From: Thermus thermophilus
GTDB taxonomy: Bacteria > Deinococcota > Deinococci > Deinococcales > Thermaceae
Assembly: GCF_019974155.1 (NCBI RefSeq)
Contig: NZ_AP025158.1
Coordinates: 806,001-870,000, forward strand
Length of the DNA stretch: 64,000 nucleotides
Direction: 5' to 3'
The first letter of the stretch is position 1. Every line of letters starts with the position of its first letter. The translations under genes were made by a program, and so were the position numbers. Below are positions 3,261 through 64,000 of this stretch, in pieces. The notes below the pieces were generated by a model. That model saw nothing but the letters and a program-made list of their open reading frames with translations. It was not told the origin of the DNA and ran no database searches.

Positions 3261-6200
3261 AGCGGACTTTGGCCCTCTTTCTCCTCCTCCTCTCCGCCCT
3301 GGCCCAGCCCGTGGTCCGGGAACTCAAGGCCACGGTGGTGGGGGACGGGGTGGGCTGGGAAACCCACACCCTGGAGATCTGGCTCGCGATCCCGGAGAAG
3401 GGAAGGGCTCGGCTGGACCTCTTCTCCCCGGGGTTTGACCCCACGGACTACCGGAGCGCCCTTCTCGGGAAACCGGAGCTAGGGGACGAGCGCTACGACG
3501 GTGGGAAGGGGGAGCTTAAGGCCACCTTCCGCCTCTACAAGGACGGGAAGCTCCTCCGGGAGATGGCCTTCGGGGTGGAGCCCCACCGCTGGGCCGGCTT
3601 CTTTGAGGGGGAGGTGGAGGCGGGGGTCTACCTCTTCCAGAGCGAGTTTCTCGGAAACGGCAAAAACGCCTTCGTCCTCCGCGTGGAGGCCCCGAACTTC
3701 GGGTTCTTCCTAGACCCTAGGCCCCAGCTCATCCTTGACGTCTCCACCCAGACCACCACCCTGCGCCTTCTTCCGGACGAGCGGGGCTGGGTCTGGGTGG
3801 AGCCCTTTAGCGTCTACTCCGAAGGCCCCCTGGAGGTGGCCTTCTACGACGAAGACGGCCCCGAGGAGCTTCGCGCCCGGGTGCGCTACGGGGACGGCTC
3901 CGTGGAAGAGCGCCCCGTTTCCGGGGACCGAGAGTGGATCGCCTACACCAAGCGACCGGGCCTCGCCATCTTCGGCTTCACCCAACCCCCCACGGCCAGG
4001 CAGTACTCCAACACCGTGGCCTTCCGGGTGGGGGCCTGCACCTCCTTGGAGAACGGGGTGCTGAAGGCCGTCCCCTCAGGGGAGGCCCGGGCGCGGGTGG
4101 TGGACGAGGAGGGCAGGCCTCTCTCCGTCCCCGTGGAGGCGAAGGACCGGGTCTTCCGGCCCCTCCTCCCCGAGGGGGCAAGCCTCCTCCGGGTGGAGGC
4201 CCGGGGGGCGGTCTTCGCAGAGGGGGACCGGGTGAGGGTGGGTTGCCCCGGGGGGGAGGTGGCCTTCGTGGTCCGCCTTCCCAAGCCCCCCGAGCCCGAA
4301 AGACCCCCGCAGGGAGAGGTGCGCTTCCGGGTGGTGGTGGCCCTGCCCGGCGGCGACCTCCCCGCCAAGGCCACCCTCCGCCTTGGGGACCTCGAGGCCC
4401 CCGTGGACGGGGAAAAGACCCTGGCCCTGCCCCAGGGCCGCTACCCCCTGGCCGTGCTCGCCGAAGGGGCCCGGGTGGAGGCCCCCAAGGAGGTGGAGGT
4501 CCTCCCCGGAAAGCGGCAGGAGGTCCTGGTGCGCCTCCTACCCGAGGTGGCCCTGAGCCTCGCCCCCGAGGAGGTCTACCTGCGGGTGGGCGAGGAGGGG
4601 GAGGTGGTCCTCACCGCCACCACCCCTTACCCGGGCCTCCTCCCCGCCGAGCTCTCCTTGGCCCTGCCGGAAGGGCTCGCCCCCCTGGGCGCCCCCAGGG
4701 CCCAGGGGCCCCTCACCAAGGACCGCCCCTTCCCCCTCAAGGTGCGCTTCCTGGCGGAGAAGGAGGGGACCTACGCCCTCCAAGGCCTCCTCGCCCCCTG
4801 GGGGCTTAGGGCGGAGGGAAGGGTGGTGGTGGTCCGCCCTGCCACCTTCCGCCTCACCAAGGAGGCCCTCACCCCCGAGGTGGAGGCCGGAGGGGTGGCC
4901 CGCTTCCGCGTCACCGTGGTGAACGAGGGGGACGAGGAAGGCAGGGCCCTCCTCCTGGACCGCTTCCTGGGAGGGGAGGAGCGGCGGGAGGTCTTCCTGA
5001 AGGCCAAGGAGGGGCGGAGCTACGAGTTCGCCTTCCCCGTGCCCCTCGAGGCCCAAGGGACCCTGGTGAACCGGGCCGAGCTTTCCACCGGGGAAAAGGC
5101 CGAGGCGGAGGTGCGGGTCCTCAGGCCCAAGGCCCACCTGGAGCGGAGCCTCCCCCACCGGATCTACCTGCCCGGGGAGGAGGTGGCCCTCGCCCTCCGG
5201 GTGGAGAACCGGGGCGAGGCCCCCATGCGCTACGTCCTGGAGGACGCCTGCCCCGACTGGCTGAGCCCCCTGGGGCCCACCCGCTTTGAGGGCTACCTCA
5301 AGCCCGGGGAAGGGGCCCTCCACACCTACCGGGCCCGGGTCCTCCTGGGGCCCGAGGCGGAGGGCACCTGCGCCGCCACCCTGCGCACCCCCACGGAGAC
5401 CCTGCGGGCGGAGGTGGCCCTGGAGAGGCGGCTTCTCCTCCTGGGGAAGGAGGCCGACCCCCCGCGCCTCCTGGAGGGAAGCCAGGGGGTCTTCCGCCTC
5501 CGGGTGAGGAACCCCGCGGACCACCGGGTGGAGGTGGAGCTCAAGGACATCCCGGGCCAGGGCCTCGGCATGGCCCCCTGGAGCGAGCGGGTGGCCCTGG
5601 AGGCGGGGGAGGAGAGGACCTTCGCCCTTCCCTTCCGGGCCGAGGCCGTGGGCGAGCTGGAAAACGGGCTTTCCGCCTTCCTCGGGGAGACCCCCGCCGC
5701 CTTCCCCGTCAAGGCCAAGGTGGCCGTCCTTCCCCTCTTCGCCCCCGAGCGGGTCTCGGTGGTGCGCCTGCCCTTCCGGGTGGAGGGGGAAGGGGACGCC
5801 CTCCTCCTGGGCTTCAGGCCCCCGGAAGGGGCGGAGTACAGCCCAGGCTCCGCCCGGCTGGACGGGAGGCCCGTGGAGGAGCCGAGGGTCCTCCCGGACG
5901 GCACCCTGGTCTGGCGCCTCCCCTTCGCCCGGGAAGGCCTCCTGACCCTCACCCTCCTCCACACCCGGGCCCTGCCGCCCCTCCCCGAGCCCGCCCTCAC
6001 CCTCCTCCGCCTGGACCGGGAGCTTCCTCTAAAAGGGGAACTCCGCCTAAGGGACTACGAGCGGGCCAAGCCCCTCTCCGCCAAGCGCAAGGGGCTCATC
6101 CAGGAGCCCATGGACGGGGCCATCGTGCAGCAGGAGGCCGTGGCCTTGAAGATTGAGGCTCCCCTCGGGCCCATCGCCGTGCGGGTGAACGGCGTTGAGG

Positions 6201-59173: not shown

Positions 59174-61194
59174 GGGGCCGGTCGGCCGGGGCCCGGCTCC
59201 CCTCCCTGGGGGCCGGGCCTTCCGGCTTCCTGGGGGGGGACCCTGCCCCCCCCGAGGGGCAGGGGGCGGCCCGCCACCAGGAGGTAGGCCTCCTGGGCCG
59301 CTTCGGCCAGGAGGGCGTTCACCTGGCCCAGGAGGTCCCGGTAGCGGCGGGCGAGGGGGTTTTGGGGGACGATCCCCATCCCCACCTCGTTGGAGACGGC
59401 GATGACCCTCTTGCCGCTTTCCTCCACTGCCCTTAGGAAGCGCCTCGCCTCCGAGAGGGGGTCCAGGCCCCGCTCCATCAGGTTGGCGACCCAGAGGGTG
59501 AGGCAGTCCACCACCACCGTGGGGTGGCGGGCCCTCTTTAGGGCCCCCGGGAGGTCCAGGGGCTCCTCCAGGGTCTCCCAGGTGGGGGGGCGCTCCTCCT
59601 TGTGGCGGCGGATCCTCTCCGCCATCTCCTCGTCCCGGGCCTCGGCGGTGGCCACCAGGGTGGCGAAGGGCCCGGCGAGCCGCTGGGCGAAGCGGCTTTT
59701 GCCGCTTTTCGCCCCGCCCAAGAGGAGGACGAGGCCGGGGGGTGGGGGCGGGTCTAAATGCCCCACCGAGGCGAAAGCCTCGGTGGGGGCCCCAAGGGGG
59801 CTTGCCGCGGGGAAGGCCTTCCCCGCAAGCCCCAGGGCCCGGTGGAGGGCCCCTAGGTCCAGGTGGCGTTCCAGGGCGTCCGCCAGGGCCTCCAGGGCCT
59901 CCTCCAGCCCCCTTGCCTCCCGGCCGAAGAGGGCCCTTTGCACCCCGGGGTTCTCCAGGAGGCCGTGGAGCCAGGTGGCGAGGAGGGGGCCTTCCTGGTG
60001 GACGAGGGGGAGGCCCTGGCCGTGGTGGATCTCGTACCCCTCCACCTCGAGGCCCTCAAGCCTCCCCCAGTACCCGGAAAGCCCCCGAAGCCTTACCCGC
60101 CTCCGCTCCACCGTCTTCTCCCGGGCCATGCGCACCCGGTAGGGGAGGAGGCCGAGGCCGGGGAACTTGCCCCTTTCCTCCACCCCCTCCTCGTCCAAGA
60201 GGGCCTCGGCGAGCATCTCCGCCCCGCCGCAGACGGCGAGGACGGGCCTGCCCGCCTCCAGGTGCCTCTGGATCAGGGGGAGGAAGGCCCGAAGCCAGGG
60301 GAGGTCCCGCGCCGGGAGGCGGCTTCCCGGGAGGATGAGGAGCTCCGCCCCTTCCGCCTCCTCGGGGGAGGTGGCGTGGACCGGGCGGGCGAGCTCGGAG
60401 AGGGGCCAGAACTCGTCCAGGTTGGCCGCGTGGGGGTAGCGGAGGAGGGCCACCTTGGGGCCATTCCCGGCGGGCTGGCGGTAGCGGAACCCGTCCTCCT
60501 CGGGGAGGGCGAGGGGGAGCATGGGCAGGGTGCCGAGGACGGGGAGGCCGGTCCAGCCCGTAAGGAGGCCGTAGGCGGGCTTGAGGAGCTCCAGGTCCCC
60601 CCGGAACTTGTTGAAGGCGAAGCCCACGAGCCTCTTTCGGTGCTCCCCCAGGAGGGCCCAGGTGCCGTAGAGCGCCCCCAGGGCCCCGCCCTGGTCCACG
60701 TCGGCCACCAGGAGGGCCTTGGCGTCCGCCCACTCGGCCACCCTTAGGTTCGGCAGGTCGGGCCAGAGGTTCCGCTCCACCGGGCTTCCCGCCCCCTCCA
60801 GCACCAGGAGGTCGTGCTCGGCGAGGAGGCCTTCCAGGGCCTCGCGGACGGGGGCCTCGAGGTGGGGCCTCCTCTCCTTCCAGGGAAGCCCGGAGAGGAA
60901 GGGGTCCACCTTCCCCCAGACCACCACCTGGGCCCCCCTCTCCCCGAAGGGCTTCACCAGGACGGGGTTCATGCGCACCTCGGGCTCCACCCCTGCCGCC
61001 AGGGCCTGGAGCCACTGGGCGCTCGCCACCTCCCCGCCCCGGACCACCCGGGCGTGGTTCGCCATGTTCTGGGCCTTGAAGGGGGCGGCCTTGAGGCCAA
61101 GCCTTTTGAAGTGGCGGAGAAGCCCCGCGGCGAAGAGGCTTTTCCCCACCCCGCTTCCCGTGCCCCAGACGATGAGGGCCTTAGCCCTTCCCAA
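59170..61194 (-). CDS. Cobyric acid synthase fused to adenosylcobinamide kinase (CbiP-CobU)
   Basis: About 674 residues. Residues 1-460 are CbiP/CobQ: an ATP-binding head (LIVWGTGSGVGKSLFAAGLL, APFKAQNMANHARVV) and a class I glutaminase with the nucleophile in VLAVCGGAEMLAEAL and the His in YEIHHGQGLP. They amidate four side chains of the corrin. Residues 495-645 are CobU, with P-loop LLLGGAKSGKSRFAQRLAG and VIAVSNEVGMGIVPQNPLAR. They make GDP-cobinamide. The last 27 residues are a Gly/Pro-rich tail. TTG 61194 is chosen for GGGAGGTG 6 nt upstream; TTG 61215 is possible. Confidence 0.9.
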   Translation of the reverse strand: MGRAKALIVWGTGSGVGKSLFAAGLLRHFKRLGLKAAPFKAQNMANHARVVRGGEVASAQWLQALAAGVEPEVRMNPVLVKPFGERGAQVVVWGKVDPFLSGLPWKERRPHLEAPVREALEGLLAEHDLLVLEGAGSPVERNLWPDLPNLRVAEWADAKALLVADVDQGGALGALYGTWALLGEHRKRLVGFAFNKFRGDLELLKPAYGLLTGWTGLPVLGTLPMLPLALPEEDGFRYRQPAGNGPKVALLRYPHAANLDEFWPLSELARPVHATSPEEAEGAELLILPGSRLPARDLPWLRAFLPLIQRHLEAGRPVLAVCGGAEMLAEALLDEEGVEERGKFPGLGLLPYRVRMAREKTVERRRVRLRGLSGYWGRLEGLEVEGYEIHHGQGLPLVHQEGPLLATWLHGLLENPGVQRALFGREARGLEEALEALADALERHLDLGALHRALGLAGKAFPAASPLGAPTEAFASVGHLDPPPPPGLVLLLGGAKSGKSRFAQRLAGPFATLVATAEARDEEMAERIRRHKEERPPTWETLEEPLDLPGALKRARHPTVVVDCLTLWVANLMERGLDPLSEARRFLRAVEESGKRVIAVSNEVGMGIVPQNPLARRYRDLLGQVNALLAEAAQEAYLLVAGRPLPLGGGRVPPQEAGRPGPQGGEPGPGRPAP

Positions 61195-61214
61195 GGCGCA
61201 CCTCCCGGTCCTCA

Positions 61215-61335
61215 AGCCGGCGCTTTTCCACGCTCATAAAGCGGTTTCGCCTCCAATAGCACCCCCTGGAGGAAGGGGAGTTCCCGGCGCTCTTGGAACT
61301 CCTCGGGGGTGAGGACGATGGCCTGGTCAAGTAGA
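61215..61335 (-). pseudogene. Nucleotidyltransferase gene, C-terminal fragment separated by the TnpB element
   Basis: The frame reads LLDQAIVLTPEEFQERRELP, then FLQGVLLEAKPLYERGKAPA and a TGA that overlaps a TTG of the cobyric acid synthase frame. LTPEEF and a closing 'G-V-L-L-E-x-x-P-L-Y' are the usual tail of minimal nucleotidyltransferases. Its N-terminal half is found 1.4 kb away at 62773-62919, so one gene was split by an insertion. Confidence 0.78.
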
Positions 61336-62919
61336 GTGCACATTAGCGCACTCCGGCCCCCCACCAGGATGGGGACCTAAGCAACCCCTCCACCCCTCCC
61401 ACGATCCCCTGAAGAGGATGGGCTTGAGGCGAGAGAAGTCCCTCGGCACCTCGCGCCCGAGAAGGGGAAGGAAGAGGCCTACCCTCAGGACCCGCCAGGG
61501 ATTAACGCCAGGGGAGTTCCTTCCCTCGGTTGACCCCTCTTGGCTGCCCGGAGAGCCCTGAAGGCTTGAAAACAAGGAGAGGTGGCGCTTCGCCCTCCCG
61601 ATCTCCCGGAAAAGCCTGCGCCTGAGGTAGGGGTTTCGTTCCTGCGCTTTCTTGGCTCGCAGTTCCCGGACTCTGGAGGCGTAGAAGCCCTGGACGTGAC
61701 CCCTGAAGCGTTCGTCCCGGAGAAGCTTCCCGTAGCCTTTGGGGAGCTTCTCCTTGAACCCTAAGGCTCTCCTTCCGATCACGTACGCGGCGGCCGCGTC
61801 CTTGGACAGGGAAAGCTGCGGGGCGTACTTCAGCATCCCGATGGTGGAGGTGTCCTGGGGGTTCACCTCCACCACCTGGACCCCTCTCTTCCGGGCCAAG
61901 GAGTGGACCTTCCGGAGAAGGGAAGCGTAGGCGAAGCGGTGGGCCTTCCTCCTGAAGACCCTCCCCGAACCGTCTCCTCTCCTCCCCTTGGGGAGGTGCT
62001 TCAGGCGCTCGGTGGCGATGGCCACGCCGTGCTCCAGGGCCAGAGAAACTACCTGGTGCGCCACCTTCCAGAGGACCAGCTCCTTGGCTCCCCTGTTCTC
62101 TGCCCGGTCCACGGGCTCCAGGGAGAGGGTCAGGTGGCGCTTCAAGTTCCCGTCTGCCCCTACCACCGCCAGGGCCAGGTGATAGGGGTCGGCGTTGATG
62201 TCTATGCCCAGGGCTCCCTTCTCCTTCGTGGCCAAGAGGGGCGCGGGCTCCTCCTCCCAGGTAAAGGTGGCGTAGACCTTGCCGTCCTTGAGGGAGAGCT
62301 CCACGTTGTAGGGAAGAGAGGCGTAGACCCTCTCCACCAAGGCGCTCAGGTTGGGGTGGCCCGTCTTCACCAGGGCGTGGGCGTAGCTCCCGTCCCCGAG
62401 GTTGATCCGGAGTTGCAGAACCCCGTACCTGACGAAGAGCTTGAGGTTCAGGTTGCCCCCCTTGGTCTTATCTCCCCGGGAGTAGAGCAAGCCTTGCCGC
62501 CTCTCCCTCCACTCCCGCTTGAGCTCCTTCAGGGGCTTGCCCGAGAGGTGCTTGCGCTTGAGCTGTTGGAAGAGCTTTCTCCCCCCGAAGACCACCTTCC
62601 GGGGGTCTTCTCCTCTCTCCCTGGCGGAGTCCAGGACGGCTTGGGCCTTCAGGATCGCGTCGTCGGCGTAGCGGGTGTTGAGGCGGAAGGAGGTGCAGAG
62701 GAAACCGTCTGCCCGTTTAAGCTCCTCCCTGGTCTGACCTTCCAGGAGGCGGTTGTAGGCGTAGCGCACGGCGGGGGCCACCACCAGGAGGTCCAGGTCG
62801 GACCTCCGGTCCGCCGTCCCTCGGGCGTGGGAGCCGAAGAGGTAAAGGGCCTCCAGGTCCAGGGCCGCCCGCAGCCGCCCCAGGGCCTCCTCCAGGTAGC
62901 GGGCAAGCTCCGGGGTCAT
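61327..62919 (-). CDS. Chimeric ORF: nucleotidyltransferase N-terminus fused in frame to a TnpB-like RuvC nuclease
   Basis: 530 residues. Residues 1-49 are a minimal nucleotidyltransferase head with the GS...DLD motif (LFGSHARGTADRRSDLDLLV). At about 62773 it changes directly into TnpB (AVRYAYNRLLEGQTREELKR). RuvC residues D240 (ALGIDINADPY), E304 (IATERLKHLP) and D374 (SLSKDAAAAYVIGRRALG) are intact. The CxxC zinc ribbon of canonical TnpB is absent, as in the OrfB branch with VNP-x-TS-x-IG. The first residues of TnpB seem lost. The start overlaps the aminotransferase stop (ATGA). No TnpA is present. The last 60 codons may read through the element's non-coding end. Confidence 0.82.
   Translation of the reverse strand: MTPELARYLEEALGRLRAALDLEALYLFGSHARGTADRRSDLDLLVVAPAVRYAYNRLLEGQTREELKRADGFLCTSFRLNTRYADDAILKAQAVLDSARERGEDPRKVVFGGRKLFQQLKRKHLSGKPLKELKREWRERRQGLLYSRGDKTKGGNLNLKLFVRYGVLQLRINLGDGSYAHALVKTGHPNLSALVERVYASLPYNVELSLKDGKVYATFTWEEEPAPLLATKEKGALGIDINADPYHLALAVVGADGNLKRHLTLSLEPVDRAENRGAKELVLWKVAHQVVSLALEHGVAIATERLKHLPKGRRGDGSGRVFRRKAHRFAYASLLRKVHSLARKRGVQVVEVNPQDTSTIGMLKYAPQLSLSKDAAAAYVIGRRALGFKEKLPKGYGKLLRDERFRGHVQGFYASRVRELRAKKAQERNPYLRRRLFREIGRAKRHLSLFSSLQGSPGSQEGSTEGRNSPGVNPWRVLRVGLFLPLLGREVPRDFSRLKPILFRGSWEGWRGCLGPHPGGGPECANVHST
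61334..61353 (-). repeat. Terminal hairpin at the presumed right end of the TnpB element
   Basis: GAGTGC and GCACTC pair across an 8-nt loop. A second stem (GGTCCCC with GGGGGGCC) lies just before it on the minus strand. Such hairpins mark the right end of IS200/IS605-type elements and the scaffold of their omega RNA. The following host bases (gene fragment at 61215-61335) would then act as the guide. Confidence 0.5.
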
Positions 62920-63911
62920 GCCCCCAGTCTAGCAAGGACCCCTTCCAGGGCCTCGAGGAGGGCTCGGATGGCCTCTTCGCGCTGGGCCGAGAGCCGGATC
63001 CACTCGGGAAGGCCGAAACTGGTGCAGTCCCGCACCCGTATGCCCCTTTCCCTCAAGGCCCTCGCCACCTCCGTGGCCCGGCCCACCCGCGCCAGGAGGA
63101 AGTTGGCGGGGCTTTCCCGGACCTCGAGGCCAAGCCCCCTAAGCCCCTCGGCGAGGAGGCGGCGGAGGCGGAAGAGCTCCCTCTTGCTCTCCTCCAGCCA
63201 GGCCCGGGCCTCCGGGTCCAGGTGGGCGTAGAGCAGGGCCTCCCCATACACGGAAACGGGCCAGGAAGGGGCGAGGTTCTGGAAGTGGGTGAGGTCCAGG
63301 GGGGCCAGGAGGTACCCCGCCCGCACCCCCGTGAGGCCGTGGGCCTTGTTGGGGCTATAGAGGCGGAAGGCCTTTTGGGGAAGGGGCGGGGGGGAGGCCA
63401 TGAGGTCGTAGTAGGCGAGGTCCAGGACCAGGGCGCCTCCTGCGCGCCTCGCCGCCTCCTCCAGGAAGGGGTAGACCTCCCCCGTGGGGTTGTTGGGCAC
63501 GCAGAGGAAGGCGAGGGAGCTTTTGGGGAGGAGCTCCAGGAAGGCCTCGGGGCTTTCCGCCTCCCAGAGGGGCAGGTCCAGGGCCCGGGCGGCCCGGGCG
63601 TACTCGCCGAAGGTGGGGGGGAGGAGGAGGATGGGCCCCCGCAGGTAGGTCCAGCGGGCCAGGCGGTGGATGAGCTCGCTCGTCCCTGTGCCCACGGCCA
63701 CCTGTTCGGGGGAGACCCCGTGGGCCTCGGCCAGGGCCTTCCTTAGCCTGCGGTAGAGGGGGTCGGGGTAGCGGCTCGGGTCGGCCCGGCGGAGGTAGTC
63801 CAGGGCCACGGGGTTGGGGCCTAGGGCGTTGGCGTTGGTGGAGAAATCGTAGAGGGGCTCGGGGCCCTCGTCGGTGCCCCCGTGGATGGGGCGGAGGACG
63901 TCGTCCAGCAT
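62916..63911 (-). CDS. CobD/HisC-type class I/II aminotransferase, probable threonine-phosphate decarboxylase
   Basis: 331 residues of the PLP fold-type I family. YDFSTNANALGPNPVALDYL and YPDPLYRRLRKALAEAHGVS are the typical head of CobD/CobC proteins. The PLP lysine is in YSPNKAHGLTGVRAGY. In this cobalamin operon it should make (R)-1-amino-2-propanol phosphate for the nucleotide loop; histidinol-phosphate aminotransferase is the alternative. ATG 63911 fits a leaderless start behind TACCAT; ATG 63920 is also possible. Its stop overlaps the split nucleotidyltransferase gene. Confidence 0.85.
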   Translation of the reverse strand: MLDDVLRPIHGGTDEGPEPLYDFSTNANALGPNPVALDYLRRADPSRYPDPLYRRLRKALAEAHGVSPEQVAVGTGTSELIHRLARWTYLRGPILLLPPTFGEYARAARALDLPLWEAESPEAFLELLPKSSLAFLCVPNNPTGEVYPFLEEAARRAGGALVLDLAYYDLMASPPPLPQKAFRLYSPNKAHGLTGVRAGYLLAPLDLTHFQNLAPSWPVSVYGEALLYAHLDPEARAWLEESKRELFRLRRLLAEGLRGLGLEVRESPANFLLARVGRATEVARALRERGIRVRDCTSFGLPEWIRLSAQREEAIRALLEALEGVLARLGA

Positions 63912-64000
63912 GCCTTCCATGGTAGGGAAGCCGCGGGAGGCCGAGTGGGGCCTAGGCTAAGGACGGAGGCGGAGGGCGCCCTTTGGCGAGGCCTCGGGGT

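What the first reader, a model, noticed from the sequence alone, without database searches (positions are those of the whole stretch)
61215..62919. TnpB-family nuclease gene inserted into, and fused in frame with, a nucleotidyltransferase gene inside a cobalamin operon
The two halves of one minimal nucleotidyltransferase gene (head at 62773-62919, tail at 61215-61335) flank a TnpB-like gene on the same strand. The head runs in frame into TnpB and brings the upstream gene's translational coupling (ATGA) with it, so the nuclease would be expressed from the cobalamin operon. RuvC D240/E304/D374 are intact, but the zinc ribbon is missing and no TnpA is present. The right end has a hairpin as in omega RNAs. 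This may be a TnpB with a borrowed N-terminus and host-driven expression, or a decaying element. Seen: fragments, fusion, motifs. Known: TnpB proteins are RNA-guided nucleases whose guide is the sequence after the right end. Inferred: activity.
Basis: partly seen in the sequence, partly recalled or inferred. Interest (0 to 1): 0.78.

Follow-up and report, generated by a model that had tools for sequence, protein, structure and literature searches.

The report
Truncated transposon nuclease fused to antitoxin
A small jumping element carrying a TnpB-type nuclease gene landed in an old antitoxin gene of a Thermus bacterium, and a later deletion removed its left end and the start of the nuclease gene, leaving an accidental in-frame fusion that is most likely a recent, broken leftover rather than a new machine.

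Summary
The sequence features are real, but the event is insertion followed by deletion, not a clean insertion. The head (62919-62775) and tail (61321-61215) are an MntA-like nucleotidyltransferase; its uninterrupted allele in a related Thermus (L119) matches 143/145 and 94/94 bases. Between them lies a TnpB element of IS607 (serine-recombinase) type, not IS200/IS605: full copies run from GGAGG|TGCAAACAGTTG to TTGACCA|GG, and one relative carries an IS607 transposase between the same ends. The window copy has lost about 273 bp of element (left end, start codon, about 46 codons) plus about 73 bp of host gene; the join happens to be in frame. The lost codons encode the first wedge-domain strand, so the fused protein is probably inactive. 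The missing zinc ribbon is not decay: every relative aligned lacks it. The right-end guide RNA looks intact (two hairpins, 6-bp pseudoknot) and could work in trans with this genome's five near-complete copies. The genome has no Y1 or serine transposase, and none of 26 other Thermus genomes has the junction. Verdict: a recent crippled copy of low to moderate interest. The zinc-ribbon-less thermophile TnpB clade, which includes the CRISPR-linked TnpB of Thermus phages Lalka, is the more interesting by-product.

The parts
62916..63920 (-). Upstream aminotransferase gene of the cobalamin operon (annotated histidinol-phosphate transaminase in relatives); its stop overlaps the next start (ATGA)
61327..62919 (-). 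Fused open frame, 530 aa (nucleotidyltransferase head + 5'-truncated TnpB)
62775..62919 (-). Head of the MntA-like nucleotidyltransferase gene (145 nt)
   Evidence: 143/145 identical to the empty allele in L119
62774..62777 (-). Deletion junction (...GTGGTGGCCC / CCGCCGTGCGC...); about 73 bp of host gene and about 273 bp of element missing
   Evidence: junction unique among 27 Thermus genomes
61322..62777 (-). Remaining part of the IS607-type tnpB element (about 1456 of about 1730 bp)
   Evidence: alignment of copies L001-L006, L010-L012, L090, L091
61355..61377 (-). Right-end RNA hairpin 1; its loop CCTGGT can pair with the terminal ACCAGG
61334..61353 (-). Right-end RNA hairpin 2 (GAGTGCGC TAAT GTGCACTC)
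61322..61327 (-). Terminal ACCAGG: 3' strand of the pseudoknot; GG (61323-61322) is the recombination core
61306..61321 (-). Predicted guide (first 16 nt after the right end), matching the empty nucleotidyltransferase allele next to GGAGG
   Evidence: sequence; empty sites; guide length by analogy with ISDra2
61215..61321 (-). Tail of the MntA-like nucleotidyltransferase gene
   Evidence: first 94 bases identical to L119
61181..61237 (-). Remnant (18 codons) of the HEPN (HepT-like) toxin gene
   Evidence: comparison with L092 and L119

Best explanation
This is a crippled copy of a non-autonomous IS607-type element that carries only tnpB and its right-end guide RNA. A full element (about 1.73 kb) inserted at GTGGAGG|CCATCG in an already orphaned MntA-like antitoxin gene of the cobalamin operon, moved in trans by an IS607 serine recombinase that is absent from the genome today. 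A later deletion removed about 73 bp of the antitoxin gene, the element's left end and the first ~46 codons of tnpB, and happened to join the two frames. Shown: empty sites, ends, deletion limits, frame, intact RuvC triad and intact right end. Inferred: the order of events, mobilisation in trans, and loss of nuclease function through loss of wedge strand 1. The right-end RNA might still be transcribed from the operon and loaded by TnpB made from the near-complete copies.
For: Uninterrupted alleles give exact limits on both sides. Every other copy that holds the left side extends about 273 bp further left, with its own ribosome-binding site, GTG start and N-terminal strand. Ends and GG core are shared with an element that has an IS607 TnpA (L097), and a second empty/filled site pair fixes the core at GGAGG. 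No Y1 or serine transposase in the genome. Junction in 1 of 27 Thermus genomes. Flanks nearly identical to L119, so the event is young. Other remnants in the same genome (L007-L009) show that copies decay by deletion. In ISDra2 TnpB the lost strand belongs to the wedge barrel and N4 in it touches the first guide-target pair (PMC10097598). The foreign head is modelled with low confidence, 43-73 against 92-97 pLDDT for residues 21-50 of the native protein.
Against: The frame is otherwise undamaged and deviates at only one conserved position, R160K, which another copy shares. The head is modelled as a strand and helix in a similar place. Neither is strong: the event is young, and the alignment given to the predictor lines the head up with the native N-terminus.
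Confidence: 0.87

Rival explanations
1. Functional chimera: the nucleotidyltransferase head supplies a replacement for wedge strand 1 and the start of the following helix, and the cobalamin operon supplies expression, giving a host-driven TnpB with an intact RuvC site and guide RNA.
For: In-frame, open over 530 codons, coupled start; D-E-D intact; right-end RNA intact; model places a strand (18-28) where the native one (20-28) lies.
Against: Single genome, young event, so an open frame is expected without selection; near-invariant N-terminal residues lost; low model confidence of the head.
Confidence: 0.06
2. The protein is dead but the locus is a live guide donor: the intact right end is transcribed from the cobalamin operon, loaded by TnpB from L002-L006, and cuts incoming uninterrupted alleles (GGAGG + CCATCGTCCTCACCCC), preserving the interruption during natural transformation. 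This can hold together with the best explanation.
For: Right ends of the window copy and L002-L006 are nearly identical; empty alleles in L092, L093, L119 and L120 carry GGAGG followed by the exact guide sequence, which any TnpB insertion would give by construction.
Against: No expression data. TnpB is reported to process its own mRNA into the guide RNA (abstract of PMC10278001, listed), so working in trans is uncertain.
Confidence: 0.15
3. Assembly artefact: the junction is a misjoin between a tnpB copy and the nucleotidyltransferase gene.
For: The element is multicopy in this genome, and the junction is seen in only one genome.
Against: The left side of the join lies in unique sequence, the right end sits at its own native flank, the genome is in two contigs, and a misjoin at a repeat would not by itself remove 73 bp of unique host sequence.
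Confidence: 0.03

Closest known systems
IS607-family TnpB elements (for example ISXfa1; serine recombinase TnpA + TnpB + right-end RNA), PMC10711439
   Same: Dinucleotide core, TnpB with RuvC D-E-D, right-end RNA with a pseudoknot that reaches the fixed core; one relative (L097) carries IS607 TnpA between the same ends
   Different: Copies in this genome are tnpB-only; the window copy lacks the left end and the N-terminus of TnpB; the clade has no zinc ribbon
ISDra2 TnpB (IS200/IS605), PMC10097598
   Same: Predicted wedge-REC-RuvC layout and fold
   Different: No Y1 TnpA, no C4 zinc finger; this copy also lacks wedge strand 1
Lalka phage TnpB next to CRISPR-like arrays, PMC11437467
   Same: Same zinc-ribbon-less family, 46% identity, D-E-D kept
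   Different: Phage gene followed by an 8-copy repeat array; the window locus has no array
HEPN/MNT (type VII) toxin-antitoxin pairs, PMC7641770
   Same: The interrupted gene is MntA-like and is followed by a HEPN gene in L092
   Different: Here the antitoxin is split and the HEPN gene is an 18-codon remnant

Membership tests
IS607-type element with TnpB | Left and right ends shared with elements that encode an IS607 serine recombinase | tested here: met
   Right end met in the window copy; left end deleted here but present in sister copies; L097 carries both ends and IS607 TnpA (NF033518, 212 bits)
IS607-type element with TnpB | Insertion at a matching dinucleotide core, no target duplication | tested here: met
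   GG core at GTGGAGG|CCATCG and, at a second site, GGAGG|TGAAGG
IS607-type element with TnpB | Own serine recombinase TnpA | tested here: not met
   None next to tnpB and none in the genome; so a non-autonomous derivative
IS200/IS605 | Y1 transposase TnpA, hairpin ends, insertion 3' of a short motif | tested here: not met
   No Y1_Tnp in the genome; ends are those of an IS607 element
TnpB RNA-guided nuclease | RuvC D-E-D triad | tested here: met
   D240, E304, D374
TnpB RNA-guided nuclease | C4 zinc ribbon (PF07282) between RuvC-II and RuvC-III | tested here: not met
   No PF07282 match in the genome; no CxxC...CxxC in any of 67 aligned relatives
TnpB RNA-guided nuclease | Complete wedge domain with N-terminal strand | tested here: not met
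   Present in sister copies, deleted in the window copy
TnpB RNA-guided nuclease | Right-end RNA with hairpins and a pseudoknot next to the guide | tested here: inconclusive
   Pairing kept in all copies, with changes on both sides in distant ones, but no significant covariation within Thermus and no RNA data
TnpB RNA-guided nuclease | RNA-guided DNA cleavage | not testable with these tools
   Needs an assay
TldR-type nuclease-dead TnpB regulators | Loss of RuvC catalytic residues | tested here: not met
   D-E-D intact
HEPN/MNT type VII toxin-antitoxin | Intact adenylyltransferase next to an intact HEPN gene | tested here: not met
   Antitoxin split, HEPN gene an 18-codon remnant

The most novel reading that the evidence does not exclude
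The fused 530-aa protein is an active RNA-guided nuclease whose wedge strand 1 has been replaced by a strand of a nucleotidyltransferase, expressed by translational coupling in the cobalamin operon, and which works without a zinc ribbon.
Probability: 0.05. Interest if true: 0.75.

Novelty: new member of a known kind. Interest (0 to 1): 0.3.

Why it matters
As a gene fusion it matters little: one genome, recent, probably dead. It does teach three things. First, these Thermus elements, annotated as IS200/IS605, belong with IS607 by their ends, target and transposase. Second, a missing zinc ribbon must not be read as decay in this family: a clade of TnpB from thermophiles lacks it while keeping the catalytic triad, which makes the need for the target-binding zinc finger directly testable. 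Third, the right end of a crippled copy stays intact, so one can ask whether dead copies go on supplying guides to live ones.

Tried and rejected
Simple insertion with a short native left end: rejected, full copies extend about 273 bp further left. The 61215-61335 frame as part of the HEPN gene: considered because HEPN follows in relatives; rejected, it aligns to the nucleotidyltransferase tail. IS200/IS605 origin: rejected. Zinc-ribbon loss as decay: rejected. Selection test: pairwise dN/dS of the window copy against 15 relatives is 0.20-0.31, which shows past constraint on the family but cannot be dated to after the fusion; branch-specific ancestral counts were not available. Rfam: no meaningful hit in 61000-63200. 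PDB sequence search with a relative: none; fold search gives Cas12f and TnpB structures first, but with TM-scores of only about 0.3-0.55. Covariation within Thermus: no more than in shuffles (one pseudoknot pair was entered one column off there, U59 with G94 instead of A95). Papers: no open paper found on Thermus IS607 TnpB or on zinc-ribbon-less TnpB; a 2023 classification of TnpB and Cas12 is not held, so the novelty of the zinc-ribbon-less clade is not established.

Full report
What is there. The frame 62919-61327(-) encodes 530 residues. Residues 1-48 match the nucleotidyltransferase family (PF01909, E=4e-8; MntA antitoxin model below its cut-off). The rest matches TnpB models (TIGR01766, guided_TnpB). 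The start codon overlaps the stop of the upstream aminotransferase gene (ATGA at 62919), and the cobyric acid synthase gene follows.

Empty site. The same locus without the element is present in several Thermus. In T. thermophilus SG0.5JP17-16 (L092) it reads aminotransferase, nucleotidyltransferase, HEPN protein, cobyric acid synthase. The closest allele, L119 from genome G006, matches the window at 143 of 145 head bases and 94 of 94 tail bases. Alignment stops at 62775 and resumes at about 61324; between these points L119 has 75 bases (ending GTGGAGG), of which only the final GG has a counterpart here. In L119, as in the window, only a remnant of the HEPN gene is left, so the antitoxin had probably lost its partner before the element came.

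The element. The genome holds five other near-complete copies (L002-L006) and three partial ones (L007-L009). Copies with a left side, in this genome and in relatives, extend about 273 bp beyond the point where the window copy begins, with a ribosome-binding site, a GTG start and about 46 more codons. Their left ends read GGAGG|TGCAAACAGTTG and their right ends TTGACCA|GG; a few differ, for example the HB27 copy L090, in its left flank. In L097 an IS607 serine recombinase gene precedes tnpB between the same two ends, so these are IS607-type elements although annotation calls them IS200/IS605. A second site is empty as GGAGG|TGAAGGATGACGG in four genomes and reads CCAGG|TGAAGG, as after insertion, in two, which fixes the GG core. 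The target GTGGAGG|CCATCG of the window copy agrees with this. The genome has no Y1 or serine transposase, so its copies cannot move without help.

The fusion. The join at 62775 combines GTGGTGGCCC of the host gene with CCGCCGTGCGC of tnpB. It is in frame, which one random join in three would be; removing 1 or 2 more bases gives frames of 89 and 66 codons. No other of the 27 Thermus genomes searched has the junction. Because the flanks are nearly identical to L119, the event is young, and the lack of other damage says little about function. Pairwise dN/dS values of 0.20-0.31 show that the family has been constrained, not that this copy is.

Expected consequence. In ISDra2 TnpB the first strand (residues 1-12) belongs to the wedge barrel, and N4 stacks on the first guide-target pair (PMC10097598). 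The window copy lost this strand and part of the next helix, including near-invariant L, M, R and S positions. AlphaFold gives 92-97 mean pLDDT for residues 21-50 of the full-length T. composti protein and 55-73 for residues 21-50 of the fusion, 43 for residues 1-20. The head is modelled as a strand and a helix in a similar place, so rescue is not excluded, but the alignment supplied may force that. Both models find Cas12f and TnpB structures as best matches.

The zinc ribbon. None of 67 aligned family members (Thermus, Meiothermus, Aquificae, Thermovorax, Caldanaerobacter, Ammonifex and others, the window copy included) has CxxC...CxxC; D-E-D is invariant where aligned, and a TSxIGMLKYAPQ...KD segment stands where the ribbon should be. 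The missing ribbon is therefore ancestral to this clade. The published TnpB motif includes the C4 finger (PMC3627910), and most zinc-finger mutations were depleted in a mutational scan of ISDra2 TnpB (PMC11844463), so this clade is a real variant.

The right-end RNA. Two hairpins and a pseudoknot between loop CCTGGT and terminal ACCAGG are kept in the window copy, apart from the innermost A-G pair of hairpin 1. Within Thermus they are too conserved to show covariation above shuffles. More distant copies keep hairpin 1 with bases changed on both sides, and some keep the pseudoknot with CTTGG for CCTGG (arms read by eye). A pseudoknot is required in ISXfa1, where the fixed right-flanking nucleotide belongs to the scaffold (PMC10711439); here the GG core falls inside the pseudoknot, which fits.

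Conclusion. A non-autonomous IS607-type TnpB element was inserted in an orphan antitoxin gene and then crippled by a deletion that chanced to fuse the frames. The nuclease is probably dead; the guide RNA may not be.

Noticed in passing
L010-L089, relatives of P0001: A TnpB clade of thermophiles (Thermaceae, Aquificae, Thermoanaerobacterales and others) keeps the RuvC triad but has no C4 zinc ribbon; a conserved TSxIGMLKYAPQ...KD segment takes its place.
   Followed up: partly
L148:2462-4633 (Thermus phage Lalka8); hits H53, H54: The TnpB that lies next to CRISPR-like arrays in Lalka phages (reported in PMC11437467) belongs to this zinc-ribbon-less family (46% identity, no CxxC, D-E-D kept); 8 repeats spaced 61-62 bp follow the gene.
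   Followed up: partly
L002-L006, L010, L012, L085, L087, L091, L096-L098, left flanks: The elements insert after GGAGG, the Shine-Dalgarno core, and some sit between a ribosome-binding site and a start codon: right flank of L005 reads GTGATCGGGATCCTGGGC (PurK-like start, from own knowledge), and of L010/L012 TGAAGGATGACGG.
   Followed up: partly
annotation of L090, L091, L096-L098: Public records name these proteins IS200/IS605 family accessory protein, but ends, core and transposase are of IS607 type.
   Followed up: yes
61181-61237; L092:2777-3464 and 4505-5102; L094; L095: The cobalamin operon of Thermus carries up to two HEPN/MNT pairs; the one next to cobyric acid synthase is in various states of loss (fused remnant in HB27, gone in HB8, frameshifted in T. 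parvatiensis, remnant in the window).
   Followed up: partly
L006 (residues near DGFLC), L018, L022:~790: Some tnpB copies hold short inserts with inverted-repeat-like sequence (for example GTCACGGGCGTAGCCCGTATCTTGCC in L018, GTCAGCCCTGAAAGGGCTACC in L022), apparently in frame in L006 and L018 at the insert.
   Followed up: no
L006 and L022 right flanks: A copy in this genome and one in T. arciformis share the same right flank (gaagaggcgaccctggcc...), which suggests a shared old insertion or repeated use of one site.
   Followed up: no
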